Source: Candidatus Saccharimonadota bacterium
GTDB lineage: Bacteria; Patescibacteriota; Saccharimonadia; Saccharimonadales; Saccharimonadaceae
Length of the DNA stretch: 55,534 bases
Reading direction: 5' to 3'
Assembly: GCA_017510835.1 (NCBI GenBank)
Contig: JAFWLZ010000002.1
Location: 1-55,534, forward strand
The notes under the pieces were generated by a model. That model was not told the origin of the DNA, did not search any database, and saw only the letters and a list, made by a program, of their open reading frames with translations. The translations under genes were made by a program, and so were the position numbers. Positions 49,277-52,393 of this stretch are shown piece after piece (position 1 is the stretch's first letter; each line of letters starts with the position of its first letter).

Positions 49277-49304
49277 TTGACTTTTATTCTGAATTTGCTA
49301 AAAT
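49277..49304 (+). promoter_or_regulatory. Promoter of the pilus operon
   Basis: TTGACT (49277-49282), N16, TAAAAT (49299-49304). The leader of about 70 bases contains a small hairpin CTGCT / AGCAG (49351-49365) directly before the GGGG ribosome site, so translation of the pilin could be tuned by folding. Confidence 0.7.
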
Positions 49305-49378
49305 AACCTTAAGTGGTTTAGTGGAAACAAAAACGAAAGGTCAAAATAATCTGCTTTTTGAGCAGGGGAATACAAACA

Positions 49379-50401
49379 ATGAAAACTAAATTCAAGAGAA
49401 TATTGTCGTTTTCGACAATCGCGGCCTTAGGTGTCGCTGGCTACGCAAGTGCAGCCGCTGTACCAATTTCTGATAATCCAGATTCGCCACAATCCGTAGA
49501 TATTTGTAAGACGATTACAAATGCCTACGATAATACGACGGCAACCTTTAACTATACTTTTGCTGCTCAGTCTACTGGGCTAACCAATGTTCCGTCCACG
49601 CAATCAATTGTGTTTAACAATGATGCTCCAACAAATCATGAGGTCAAAAAATGTACTACTGTAAGTCTTGCTAACGTGGCCTTCACTGATAATTCGCCAA
49701 AGCAGGTTGAAGTTGAAGTTACTGAAACTCCAGTCAGTGGTTTTTCTGTTGACTCTACTACCTATAAAATATTATTTGACCTTCGTAATACTGTTGACGC
49801 TAACGATAATATTACTGGCCAGATCGCAACTGCGTATCTTCATGACGATTCCGGCCAAAAGGTAAGCAAATTCGATTTCGCTTCCGCTAAGCAATACGGC
49901 GACAAAGACATTACGCTCACTAAGACCGTTAAAGGCAATGGCGGCGATGTAAATAAATACTTCAAGTTCACCGCAAATATCTCCGGTGCAGCCGGCACGA
50001 CCTACACAGTTTACGGCTCAAGCAGCACTGATTCTGCTAGCAGCTGTGCTGCAAATACTGCCTGTGTTATCTATGCAAAGCACGGCGAAACAATTCGCAT
50101 CGGCTTTGATGGTACAGATAGTGAGATTCCTGTAGGCGAAACCTATACCATTACTGAGGATGCTTATAGCGATTACACGACTTCGGTTGCGGTTGGCGGC
50201 GGTACTGCTTCCAGCTCGAGCACGACTGGTCAACAAACAATCTCCGCTACTTCCGCAAATAATACAGCAGCATTCACAAACGTAAAAGGCATTAACCCTC
50301 CAACCGGTCTCTTCCTCAATCTCTGGCCATACATCCTTCTTGGCGCAATCTCCGCCGGTGCAATTATCTACGGCAAAAAACTTCGCTCATCAAAGAAATA
50401 A
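49379..50401 (+). CDS. Sortase-assembled major pilin, Spy0128/FctA-like
   Basis: The protein has 340 residues from ATG 49379. A signal peptide (about 1-26) ends near YASAAA. The mature part has two Ig-like domains. The second (about 175-304) follows the FctA/T-antigen pattern: ITLTKTVKGNGGD with Lys 182, GETYTITEDAYSDY with Glu 260 and AAFTNVKG with Asn 301, the expected Lys-Glu-Asn set for an internal isopeptide bond. The first domain has Lys 161 in GQKVSKF, placed like the pilus-linking Lys of Spy0128. There NFASA-type Asn is replaced (FDFASA), but Cys 43 and Cys 92 could form a disulfide; Cys 223 and Cys 229 are a second pair. The C-terminus is the sorting signal NPPTG (306-310), a hydrophobic helix and KKLRSSKK. 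Confidence 0.88.
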   Translation: MKTKFKRILSFSTIAALGVAGYASAAAVPISDNPDSPQSVDICKTITNAYDNTTATFNYTFAAQSTGLTNVPSTQSIVFNNDAPTNHEVKKCTTVSLANVAFTDNSPKQVEVEVTETPVSGFSVDSTTYKILFDLRNTVDANDNITGQIATAYLHDDSGQKVSKFDFASAKQYGDKDITLTKTVKGNGGDVNKYFKFTANISGAAGTTYTVYGSSSTDSASSCAANTACVIYAKHGETIRIGFDGTDSEIPVGETYTITEDAYSDYTTSVAVGGGTASSSSTTGQQTISATSANNTAAFTNVKGINPPTGLFLNLWPYILLGAISAGAIIYGKKLRSSKK

Positions 50402-50413
50402 CGCAACATAACT

Positions 50414-50953
50414 ATGCAACAAAAACAAACAGAAAAGTCGGCTAAGACTCAGGCGATCAAGCCTGAGTTACGCCGTAAATTAATCATCCTCGGAGCCAAG
50501 CTAGTCGGCACGATTCTGCTGCTTTATATTCTCCTATTTCGGATTTACGGCTTCGTTCGTATCGACACGAATGTGATGTCTCCGAATGTGAGAGGCGGTG
50601 ATTTAGCTCTCATGTTTCATCTCATGGGTGATTATAGTATCGGCGATGTCGTAACTTATCGCTGTGGCGATCACGCTTGCGTTGGTCGCGTAGCGGCAAA
50701 GGAAGGCGATGTCGTTAATATTAAAGACGGTAAAGTATTGGTTAATGGACATCCGGAAGAAAACACCGCTTATGGCGACGACATCTATCCAGACGGAAGC
50801 TCAGTGAAATATCCGTACACTGTCGCAAAGGAGCAATACTTTATTCTCGGTGACAATCGCAATGAATATGATGATTCGCGTAGTTTTGGTGCAATCAATA
50901 AATCTGAGATTACAAGCTTAATAATCGGAGTATTTAGGACTCATGAACTCTAG
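50414..50953 (+). CDS. Signal-peptidase-like pilus assembly protein lacking the Ser-Lys dyad (SipA-like)
   Basis: The protein has 179 residues: a basic N-terminus, one membrane helix (about 22-47) and a type I signal peptidase fold. The catalytic box reads NVMSPNVRGGD where active enzymes have S-M-x-P-T, so Val 54 occupies the Ser position. The lysine box reads VGRVAAKEGD where active enzymes have K-R-V-x-G-x-P-G-D, so Gly 91 replaces the general-base Lys. The last box, LGDNRNEYDDSRSFG, is intact. From memory, S. pyogenes SipA also lacks both residues yet is needed for pilus polymerisation. The place between pilin and sortase supports the same chaperone-like role. Its stop overlaps the sortase gene by 11 bases. 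No ribosome site is visible. Confidence 0.85.
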   Translation: MQQKQTEKSAKTQAIKPELRRKLIILGAKLVGTILLLYILLFRIYGFVRIDTNVMSPNVRGGDLALMFHLMGDYSIGDVVTYRCGDHACVGRVAAKEGDVVNIKDGKVLVNGHPEENTAYGDDIYPDGSSVKYPYTVAKEQYFILGDNRNEYDDSRSFGAINKSEITSLIIGVFRTHEL

Positions 50954-51671
50954 AATTCAAATACTCTTAGATTTAATCGATCGCTTTCTAAGTCAGATCA
51001 TTATCATTGTCTTCGTCGCGGTGCTCACGCTTTGTCTATATGTAGTTTATGATGCATTTTGTATCCATAATGAAACACAAGTAATATCTGGCGCTGCTGA
51101 GCTCGTCAAAAACGTTCCAGACGATCAGCGTATCTCCGAGCTGAAGCGTACGAACGAGGATATTAAAGCCTGGATTAAACTTGATGATACGGAGATTGAT
51201 TATCCGATTACTCAGACTAGCAATAATCAGTTCTATCTCACTCACGATTATAAGAAGGAATATTCGATCGCCGGTAGCATCTTTGCTGATTATCGCAGTA
51301 ATCTTACTGCTGACAACTACTCAGTCATTTATGGTCATAATATGAACGGCAATTCGATGTTCGGATCGCTCAATCAGTTCCGTGACGGCGACTACTTCTC
51401 TAAGCATAACTCGGGCAGAATCTATCTAGAAGATGGCAAAAATTATAGCTTGCAGGTTCTTGGTTTTGCAGTAGTTGAGGATAGTCAAAATCCACTCTAT
51501 GATCTAGATAATAACGCCAACGGCGCAAACGAGACAATCATAAATACAGTTAACTCAGCCGCAATCAATAAAAACACCCCGGCAGATATGCCAAATACGC
51601 TTCTTCTTCTCTCGACCTGTTATCAGCATTCCTCGCAGCGCTCGGTTCTCCTAGTAGGGTATAATAGATAA
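50943..51671 (+). CDS. Class B sortase
   Basis: The protein has 242 residues. An N-terminal membrane helix (about 15-37) leads to a sortase B fold with NEDIKAWIKLDDTEIDYPIT, FADYRSN, VIYGHNMNGNSMFGSL (catalytic His 132), FSKHNSGRIYL and LLLLSTCYQHSSQRSVLLVG (catalytic Cys 226, Arg 233). In streptococcal FCT-3 pilus islands the polymerising enzyme is also of class B type, next to a SipA and an FctA pilin. The same trio occurs here, so this is probably the pilin polymerase. It may also attach pili or other NPxTx proteins to the envelope. Translation is coupled to the upstream gene. Confidence 0.92.
   Translation: MNSRIQILLDLIDRFLSQIIIIVFVAVLTLCLYVVYDAFCIHNETQVISGAAELVKNVPDDQRISELKRTNEDIKAWIKLDDTEIDYPITQTSNNQFYLTHDYKKEYSIAGSIFADYRSNLTADNYSVIYGHNMNGNSMFGSLNQFRDGDYFSKHNSGRIYLEDGKNYSLQVLGFAVVEDSQNPLYDLDNNANGANETIINTVNSAAINKNTPADMPNTLLLLSTCYQHSSQRSVLLVGYNR
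51660..51665 (+). promoter_or_regulatory. Leaderless-type -10 box after the sortase gene
   Basis: TATAAT lies in the last codons of the sortase gene and ends seven bases before ATG 51673, giving the next gene its own, probably leaderless, transcript. Confidence 0.6.
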
Positions 51672-51672
51672 T

Positions 51673-52260
51673 ATGAATAAAGTTGAGCGTGCAATTATCT
51701 ATGCTATTCGTGCCTGTTTTATCATTTTGGCAGCGCTCTTTCTTATAAGAATTATTGTTGATCCAAACTACAATAAATGGGGCGGCGTAATTGCCGGCGT
51801 CGGCTTGCCGTTCCTTCCGCCAATTATTGAGAAAGTTTATAAAAGTCACATTTCTTTCCGAATTCAGCTTATTTATTATATTTTTCTCTTTGTAGCGCTT
51901 GATCTTGGCATCTGTATGGACTGGTATAAGACTGCGCCGTATTTTGATAAAATAATTCATTTCGGCTCTGGAATTCTTTCGGCGCTTGTTGGCTATTATG
52001 GTTTAGAGTATTTCAAAGTTCACAAAGCGCCGCGCGGTTTTAAATTCCTGTTTATCATTTCGGTTTGTATGCTGGTCGCGGTCGGTTGGGAATGTTTCGA
52101 ATTCTGTTGCGACAAGTTCCTTGGTCAGAGTATGCAGCAACTCGTGTCCGTCGGCGTAGACGATACGATGTTTGATTTGATTGCTGCTTTTGTTGGCTCG
52201 CTTATTGGTGCAGCCCTAATGACGACGCCTGGTTTTGCCAAAATGCTCGAAAAAGACTAA
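51673..52260 (+). CDS. DUF2238/YjdF-like integral membrane protein
   Basis: The protein has 195 residues with five or six hydrophobic segments. Family-like motifs are DKIIHFGSGILSALVGYYGL, VGWECFEFCCDKFLGQSMQQ and VGVDDTMFDLIAAFVGSLIG, with the conserved His, Trp-Glu and Asp residues of the DUF2238 group. The function is unknown; some relatives are linked to membrane or envelope stress. It lies between the pilus operon and dnaK but has its own -10 box, so a pilus role is not required. Confidence 0.75.
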   Translation: MNKVERAIIYAIRACFIILAALFLIRIIVDPNYNKWGGVIAGVGLPFLPPIIEKVYKSHISFRIQLIYYIFLFVALDLGICMDWYKTAPYFDKIIHFGSGILSALVGYYGLEYFKVHKAPRGFKFLFIISVCMLVAVGWECFEFCCDKFLGQSMQQLVSVGVDDTMFDLIAAFVGSLIGAALMTTPGFAKMLEKD

Positions 52261-52283
52261 AAAATCTCGTCTCTACCTCTGTA

Positions 52284-52310
52284 TTAGCACTCTTGACAGT
52301 AGAGTGCTAA
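52284..52310. promoter_or_regulatory. CIRCE operator 1 (perfect)
   Basis: TTAGCACTC-N9-GAGTGCTAA is the full consensus for the HrcA repressor. The dnaK -35 box TTGACA lies inside the nine-base spacer, so HrcA binding would directly block RNA polymerase. Confidence 0.97.
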
Positions 52311-52321
52311 TGATATAGAAT
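52293..52321 (+). promoter_or_regulatory. dnaK promoter
   Basis: TTGACA (52293-52298), N17, TAGAAT (52316-52321). It overlaps CIRCE 1 and is followed by CIRCE 2 in the leader. Confidence 0.9.
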
Positions 52322-52333
52322 TATCTGTAAGAA

Positions 52334-52360
52334 TTAGCACTAATCCACCGTGAGTGCTAA
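52334..52360. promoter_or_regulatory. CIRCE operator 2
   Basis: TTAGCACTA-N9-GAGTGCTAA departs from the perfect palindrome by one base in the left arm. It lies in the transcribed leader, 50 bases from copy 1 (centre to centre), about five helical turns, so two HrcA dimers could sit on the same face. As RNA it can also form a hairpin. Confidence 0.95.
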
Positions 52361-52393
52361 ACGTAAAAGAATTTCTAAATGGAGGAAATTTAA

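What the first reader, a model, noticed from the sequence alone, without database searches (positions are those of the whole stretch)
49277..51671. Compact FCT-like sortase pilus operon with a catalytically altered signal peptidase
Seen in sequence: three coupled genes encode a pilin with NPPTG sorting signal and FctA-like isopeptide residues, a type I signal peptidase homologue with Val 54 and Gly 91 at the Ser and Lys positions, and a class B sortase with His 132, Cys 226 and Arg 233. Established: streptococcal FCT-3/4 pilus islands use exactly FctA, SipA (also lacking the Ser-Lys dyad) and a class B sortase. Inference: a reduced, single-pilin version of that machine operates in a CPR-type bacterium and may mediate attachment to its host cell or to mucosa. 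Finding it far from streptococci raises questions of transfer and of how such a minimal system works without tip and base pilins.
Basis: partly seen in the sequence, partly recalled or inferred. Interest (0 to 1): 0.88.

Follow-up and report, generated by a model that had tools for sequence, protein, structure and literature searches.

The report
Streptococcus-type pilus operon in a Saccharibacterium
A tiny episymbiont-type bacterium (Saccharibacteria) carries the same three-part kit (backbone pilin, dead signal peptidase SipA, class B sortase) that streptococci use to build covalent pili, and its relatives carry natural shrunken versions of SipA that could finally show what this puzzling assembly factor does.

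Summary
Window 49379-51671 encodes a pilin, a SipA-like protein and a class B sortase in coupled genes. Profiles or folds tie each to the streptococcal SipA-dependent pilus: the pilin to Spy0128/FctA, the SipA-like protein to SipA far above working signal peptidases, and the sortase to class B enzymes with intact His132/Cys226/Arg233. The acceptor lysine (Lys161) and the sorting signal are in place. One correction: only the C-terminal domain keeps a Lys-Glu-Asn isopeptide triad. The lysine of the signal peptidase dyad is absent in all 22 Saccharibacteria homologues read.

The 'single-pilin minimal machine' reading is only partly right. Sister genomes carry one or more sorting-signal adhesins at the same operon. 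The nearest sister has two, exactly where the window has none. The window's genome holds a related adhesin on another contig and a second pilin-sortase pair. Within Saccharimonadia the pilin is confined to two of 152 sampled genera.

Unexpectedly, that second pilin locus carries natural mini-SipAs (72-105 aa: membrane helix plus three strands, central domain gone) or no SipA in related genomes. Some of these loci also hold conserved in-frame UGA codons. Pilus formation itself is inferred, not shown.

The parts
49277..49304 (+). promoter-like TTGACT-N16-TAAAAT upstream of the operon
   Evidence: read in sequence; the element and the following 40 bases align with the promoter region of the 656-aa adhesin gene of sister L071
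49274..49378 (.). junction where sister L071 carries a 656-aa SpaA+DUF7601 sorting-signal protein and the window has none
49379..50401 (+). FctA-type major pilin, 340 aa; signal peptide about residues 1-25
49859..49861 (+). Lys161 codon, equivalent of the Spy0128 acceptor lysine
   Evidence: HMMER alignment to 3b2m; Lys at this column in 17 of 19 relatives and within a few residues in the other 2
49907..50287 (+). DUF7601 domain (pilin domain 2) with Lys182-Glu260-Asn301 isopeptide triad
50294..50308 (+). NPPTG sorting motif, followed by hydrophobic helix and basic tail to 50398
   Evidence: helix 309-339 in the model
50414..50953 (+). SipA-like protein, signal peptidase fold without the Ser-Lys dyad (Val54 codon 50573-50575, Gly91 codon 50684-50686)
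50943..51671 (+). class B sortase, His132 / Cys226 / Arg233
51673..52260 (+). DUF2238-like membrane protein, one base after the sortase; conserved behind the sortase in the two nearest relatives; role unknown
52261..52393 (.). junction (before dnaK) where sister L071 carries a 791-aa SpaA+DUF7601 sorting-signal protein and the window has none

Best explanation
The operon encodes a covalent pilus of the SipA-dependent, class B sortase type known from streptococcal FCT-2/3/4 islands and pilus islet 2. The pilin is exported by Sec; its signal peptide is presumably removed by the separate Ser-Lys signal peptidase on contig 30. The membrane-bound sortase cuts the NPPTG-type motif at Thr309 and joins it to Lys161 of the next pilin, making a shaft. 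The catalytically dead SipA assists at the membrane as a scaffold or chaperone for pilin and sortase. Tip or adhesin subunits are supplied from elsewhere in the genome (contig 37 SpaA+DUF7601 protein) because the copies at this locus, still present in the nearest sister, are absent here. A third class B sortase (contig 3) is a candidate for wall anchoring. Shown here: gene content, homology, key residues, synteny and distribution. Inferred: polymerisation, the role of SipA, use of the adhesin in trans, anchoring, and attachment to a host cell or surface.
For: Three neighbouring genes independently match the three parts of one known machine. Acceptor lysine and sorting threonine are conserved in the family. 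Sortase catalytic residues are invariant. Gene order pilin-SipA-SrtB holds in nearly all of about 20 relatives, with adhesin-like sorting-signal proteins in the operon of most. The dyad Lys is missing in every Saccharibacteria homologue read, while it is present in nearly all of about 90 other S26 proteins fetched with the same query. Streptococcal precedent: SipA is essential for polymerisation and its Asp/Lys at the old active site are dispensable (PMC4049620); Spy0129 is a class B pilin polymerase with Cys221/His126/Arg229 (PMC3019223); S. suis makes pili from the major subunit alone when its ancillary pilin gene is dead (PMC2797073).
Against: No experiment shows a polymer. Domain 1 of the window pilin lacks the Asn of its isopeptide bond. 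The window protein itself misses the Pfam FctA model and is joined to Spy0128 only by profile and fold. No dedicated base pilin was identified. The sortase scores just under the NCBIfam class B cut-off. The genome is a 73-contig assembly (91.6% complete), so gene absence is provisional. The second pilin-sortase pair of the same genome works, if at all, without SipA.
Confidence: 0.8

Rival explanations
1. Anchoring cassette, not a pilus: the sortase attaches single copies of the DUF7601 protein to the cell wall and no polymer forms.
For: Class B sortases of S. aureus type anchor monomers; Spy0129 is structurally close to them (PMC3019223). Some sorting motifs in the family are degenerate.
Against: SipA-like partners are known with pilus polymerisation; the loop lysine that serves as acceptor in Spy0128 is kept in 17 of 19 relatives by column, nearby in the other two; the protein matches shaft pilins, not wall proteins.
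Confidence: 0.12
2. The 50414 protein is a working, pilin-specific signal peptidase using other catalytic residues.
For: Signal peptidase fold and TIGR02227 hit above cut-off; Ser is still present at the nucleophile position in several relatives.
Against: Lys is never present; the Ser column is V, A, N, I, S or G; the genome has a normal Ser-Lys signal peptidase on contig 30; mutating the equivalent positions in S. pyogenes SipA does nothing (PMC4049620).
Confidence: 0.04
3. Home-grown look-alike: the SipA-like protein arose from a Saccharibacteria signal peptidase and the resemblance to SipA is convergent.
For: Other Patescibacteria signal peptidases are full of S26 relatives; the source of the operon is not resolved.
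Against: The single window sequence picks SipA over all active signal peptidases by many orders of magnitude (2.2e-22 against 7.7e-05), and two other genes of the same machine are next to it.
Confidence: 0.08
4. Relic: with its adhesins gone the window operon is decaying and no longer makes a working pilus.
For: Two sorting-signal genes present in sister L071 are absent at the window locus.
Against: All three genes are intact with catalytic and acceptor residues, start-stop coupling and a promoter; a homologous adhesin persists on contig 37.
Confidence: 0.06

Closest known systems
Streptococcus pyogenes FCT-2/3/4 pilus (Cpa, FctA/Spy0128, SipA/LepA, class B sortase SrtC1/2, FctB)
   Same: FctA-type shaft pilin, SipA without dyad, class B sortase, acceptor lysine in a loop before the last strand of domain 1 (Lys161), xPPTG-type motif (PMC7900414 reports VPPTG and QVPTG in FCT-3)
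   Different: No adhesin or base pilin at the window locus; gene order pilin-SipA-sortase; one of the two pilin isopeptide bonds missing; found in Saccharibacteria; second pilin locus with reduced or no SipA
Streptococcus pneumoniae/oralis pilus islet 2 (PitA, SipA, PitB, SrtG)
   Same: SipA plus shaft pilin; PitB structures are among the top fold matches
   Different: PitB longer; locus carries its tip protein
Streptococcus suis srtF cluster (SipF, Sfp2 pseudogene, Sfp1, SrtF)
   Same: pili of the major subunit alone after loss of the ancillary pilin (PMC2797073)
   Different: SrtF is called a class C sortase there; SipF is dispensable (PMC2797073), and PMC4049620 describes a SipA-like homologue of this kind as keeping an intact dyad
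Type IV pili of Saccharibacteria and other CPR
   Same: proposed host attachment of CPR cells
   Different: non-covalent, unrelated machinery; the usual explanation of CPR pili (PMC8672522)

Membership tests
SipA-dependent class B sortase pilus (FCT-2/3/4, PI-2 type) | two-domain FctA-type shaft pilin | tested here: met
   profile to Spy0128 E 1.8e-19 over both domains; top fold match. The Pfam FctA model PF12892 itself does not hit the window pilin, only DUF7601 does
SipA-dependent class B sortase pilus (FCT-2/3/4, PI-2 type) | acceptor lysine of the Spy0128 Lys161 kind, no YPKN motif | tested here: met
   Lys161 aligned; no YPKN in the translation
SipA-dependent class B sortase pilus (FCT-2/3/4, PI-2 type) | C-terminal sorting signal | tested here: met
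   NPPTG, helix 309-339, KKLRSSKK tail
SipA-dependent class B sortase pilus (FCT-2/3/4, PI-2 type) | isopeptide bond residues in both pilin domains (as in Spy0128) | tested here: inconclusive
   domain 2 triad present, domain 1 Asn replaced by Ser; bond formation itself not testable
SipA-dependent class B sortase pilus (FCT-2/3/4, PI-2 type) | SipA: signal peptidase fold without Ser-Lys dyad, in the operon | tested here: met
SipA-dependent class B sortase pilus (FCT-2/3/4, PI-2 type) | class B sortase with His, Cys, Arg, in the operon | tested here: met
   0.95 bits under the NCBIfam cut-off
SipA-dependent class B sortase pilus (FCT-2/3/4, PI-2 type) | tip adhesin gene in the operon | tested here: not met
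   absent at the window locus; present there in sister L071 and in most relatives, homologue on contig 37. Taken as variable rather than defining, since S. suis makes pili without it
SipA-dependent class B sortase pilus (FCT-2/3/4, PI-2 type) | base pilin with LPXTG for the housekeeping sortase | tested here: inconclusive
   none identified; second DUF7601 pilin (contig 73) and NPRTN/NLPTS-tailed proteins exist but their role is unknown
SipA-dependent class B sortase pilus (FCT-2/3/4, PI-2 type) | covalent polymer on the cell surface | not testable with these tools
   needs protein or cells
Active type I signal peptidase (S26A) | Ser nucleophile and Lys general base | tested here: not met
   Val54 and Gly91; Lys absent in all relatives

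The most novel reading that the evidence does not exclude
In this genus SipA has been cut down by evolution to its working core. At the second pilin-sortase locus it survives as a 72-79 residue peptide made of the membrane helix and the three membrane-lying strands (b1, b2, b10 of the crystal structure). The whole peptide-binding and former catalytic domain is gone, and in other species SipA is absent. If these micro-SipAs work, SipA acts as a membrane platform for pilin and sortase, not by binding peptides in its cleft. In addition, some of these loci appear to be translated through conserved UGA codons.
Probability: 0.45. Interest if true: 0.85.

Novelty: new variant of a known kind. Interest (0 to 1): 0.72.

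Why it matters
I found no paper in the searched library that reports sortase-built pili in Saccharibacteria or other CPR bacteria (judged from abstracts and term counts only, except one paper opened); attachment of these cells is normally ascribed to type IV pili. A second, covalent attachment system would matter for how episymbionts hold their hosts or live in the gut. It also bears on an open question: why class B sortase pili need SipA and what SipA does (PMC4049620, PMC7900414). This genus offers a natural series (full SipA, 94-105 aa mini-SipA, 72-79 aa micro-SipA, none) beside related pilins and sortases, so the needed part of SipA can be tested directly. It also shows apparent exchange of the domain 2 isopeptide triad for a cysteine pair within one pilin family.

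Tried and rejected
- phmmer of the single pilin sequence against PDB found nothing relevant; only the family profile and the fold did.
- An SipA alignment too diverse for the contig scan failed and was replaced by five closer sequences.
- Searching other phyla around the Atopobiaceae genome was not possible, so the donor of the operon is unresolved. The sortase tree puts the two outsiders on long branches that meet and cannot place them.
- The idea that TGA is recoded genome-wide was rejected: TGA ends 52 of 407 long genes, and among the tRNA loci fetched from 11 genomes every tRNA-Trp found has anticodon CCA with an ordinary sequence. The probe pattern would miss a diverged suppressor tRNA.
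- A 168-aa S26 protein near two second-pilin loci (L178, L192) proved to be a Ser-His SipW-type enzyme by its motifs, not SipA.
- Foldseek with the 72-aa micro-SipA model was not significant; SipA came third at E 2.7, so its homology rests on sequence, position and the predicted helix-plus-three-strands only.

Full report
OBSERVATION. The pilin (340 aa) has a signal peptide ending in ASA (the Ala is nearly invariant in relatives), a DUF7601 domain (E 1.2e-16), NPPTG, a membrane helix and a basic tail. The 179-aa protein has one N-terminal membrane helix and a signal peptidase domain. The 242-aa protein is a class B sortase. Sortase and SipA-like genes overlap by 11 bases; the next gene, a DUF2238-like membrane protein, begins one base after the sortase.

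WHAT EACH PART IS. The SipA-like protein alone retrieves S. pyogenes SipA (2.2e-22) ahead of any working signal peptidase (7.7e-05); a family profile gives 2.4e-49 against 6.5e-17 (the profile included the SipA fragment). In 18 aligned Saccharibacteria homologues the Ser position is V, A, N, S or G and the Lys position is G, S, L, Y or A, never Lys; four further ones (L071, L073, L074, L075) likewise have no Lys. Of the other S26 proteins fetched by the same query nearly all read Ser and Lys; the Atopobiaceae L080 (Ser/Gly) and the Mogibacterium L103 (Asp; Lys column gapped in the alignment, Gly by eye) lack the pair and sit beside a class B-like sortase. The genome's own Ser-Lys signal peptidase is on contig 30. 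The sortase keeps His132, Cys226 and Arg233, invariant in 20 relatives, the residues equivalent to Spy0129 His126, Cys221, Arg229 (PMC3019223). The pilin profile finds T18.1 (3.5e-33), Spy0128 (1.8e-19), PitB (6.5e-12) and the C-terminal part of Cpa (2e-08); the AlphaFold2 model (pLDDT 83) has Spy0128, T-antigens and PitB as top fold matches. TM-scores over the full length are modest (0.37 to 0.55).

RESIDUES. Read from the HMMER alignment to 3b2m and tabulated: Lys161 of the window precursor aligns with the Spy0128 acceptor Lys161 (identified as such in PMC7900414). Domain 2 has Lys182, Glu260, Asn301. Domain 1 has Lys44 and a conserved Glu but Ser169 for Asn168, and Cys43 and Cys92, which could form a disulfide (inference). 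Across the family, members that lost the domain 2 Lys or Glu carry a Cys pair in domain 2 (nine of nine SipA-operon members lacking both residues; one more member with the pair lacks only the Lys, and another has both triad and Cys pair), while members with the triad mostly lack that pair. This looks like replacement of an isopeptide lock by a disulfide lock; bonding is not shown.

CONTEXT AND HISTORY. In sister L071 (Candidatus Saccharibacteria MAG, SipA 79% identical) the same chromosomal locus reads phosphoketolase - promoter - 656-aa SpaA+DUF7601 protein (SVPTG) - pilin - SipA - sortase - DUF2238 - 791-aa SpaA+DUF7601 protein (IPTG) - dnaK. The window has the identical frame without the two large genes, and the window promoter region aligns with the L071 adhesin promoter. 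In G322/L051 (SipA 61%) an 804-aa relative precedes the pilin and is flanked by murB and folD; in the window's genome a homologue (at least 800 aa, cut by the contig end, about 31% identical) lies next to murB and folD on contig 37 (murB and folD named by eye). So the adhesin gene has been separated from the pilin genes, or lost here and kept elsewhere. More distant relatives have adhesins of other kinds in the operon: vWA plus DUF285 repeats, InlB-type repeats, up to 1761 aa. Adhesins turn over while pilin, SipA and sortase stay.

DISTRIBUTION. SipA-like proteins of this type occur in 16 of 24 genomes of the window's genus and two of a second genus in the same family, among 393 Saccharimonadia. 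The pilin occurs in 22 of 24 plus the same two, and nowhere else in 152 genera. In a phylum-wide sample only the window's genus has SipA; of the other Patescibacteria hits, the seven read are Ser-Lys enzymes. This narrow spread suggests gain by transfer in this family, but the donor is not resolved. Named relatives include a sheep rectum MAG.

A SECOND PILIN LOCUS AND SHRUNKEN SIPA. Nearly every genome of the genus has another locus: 121-aa membrane protein - 540-aa protein (glycosyltransferase-like, by eye) - pilin - (SipA remnant) - class B sortase. In the window's genome it is on contig 73, with no SipA. In ten species a short gene sits between pilin and sortase: 94-105 aa in L177, L180, L181, L190 and L191; similar but interrupted by a TGA in L176 and L182; 72-73 aa in L183, L185 and L193. 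The SipA profile picks exactly these ten out of 341 short ORFs (E 1e-10 to 3e-4; next ORF 0.5). They keep the membrane helix, the RxxG...DGDL stretch (strands b1 and b2) and the C-terminal RVRG strand (b10), and lose the centre. AlphaFold2 of the 72-aa form gives a helix (5-31) and three strands (pLDDT 73; no significant fold match). In S. pyogenes SipA b1, b2 and b10 form the sheet that lies on the membrane (PMC4049620). The inference is that this sheet is what the pilus machine needs most; a slow loss of an unneeded gene is the alternative. A third class B sortase (contig 3 type) is in nearly all genomes of the genus and may be the wall-anchoring enzyme.

IN-FRAME UGA. In the second locus of nine species the pilin, mini-SipA or sortase frame is interrupted only by TGA, never TAA or TAG, with no frameshift (one of these, L180, may lie before the true start). 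Two sites, one in the pilin and one in the sortase, are shared by G062, G148, G186 and G225, three lineages about 51% identical with saturated synonymous sites; sequence before and after the codon is under purifying selection (L190/L191 dN/dS about 0.06). TGA is otherwise a normal stop and every tRNA-Trp found has a CCA anticodon. Read-through or split products are both possible. None of this affects the window genes.

HOW IT WORKS, AND LIMITS. See Best explanation. Shown: anatomy, homology, residues, synteny, distribution. Inferred: polymer, SipA role, anchoring, attachment. The literature library holds only open-licence papers and most hits were judged from abstracts and term counts, so 'no earlier report' is limited to that.

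Noticed in passing
L176, L177, L182, L184, L186, L190, L191, L193 (second pilin loci of related genomes): In-frame stops in pilin, mini-SipA and sortase genes are all TGA; two positions are conserved across three lineages about 51% identical with purifying selection on both sides. UGA read-through or split products; unexplained.
   Followed up: partly
L183:2897-3118, L185:2959-3177, L193:2768-2986, L177:2723-3022, L180:4474-4791, L181:2938-3222, L190:4204-4506, L191:3892-4194: Mini- and micro-SipA genes (72-105 aa) between pilin and class B sortase, keeping only the membrane helix, b1-b2 and the C-terminal strand.
   Followed up: yes
alignment A2, domain 2 of the pilins (window residues 182-301): Isopeptide triad Lys-Glu-Asn replaced by a cysteine pair in many members of the genus; one member has both.
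   Followed up: partly
window:52240-52420: Two CIRCE-like inverted repeats (TTAGCACTC...GAGTGCTAA type) upstream of dnaK, conserved in sister L071; recognised by eye, suggests HrcA control.
   Followed up: no
window:47188-49273: Phosphoketolase split in two overlapping ORFs (XFP_N in one, XFP and XFP_C in the other); the same two-ORF arrangement in sister L071.
   Followed up: no
L080:4437-8693: Atopobiaceae (Actinobacteria) MAG from sheep jejunum with a SipA-like protein (Ser/Gly), a pilin-like VIPTG protein weakly matching FctA, a class B-like sortase and a further sorting-signal-like protein: a SipA-type cluster outside Firmicutes.
   Followed up: partly
L044:8445-8999 (contig 73 of the window's genome): Partial surface protein ending NPRTND + hydrophobic helix + basic tail, an NPxTN-like signal that might be a class B sortase substrate.
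   Followed up: no
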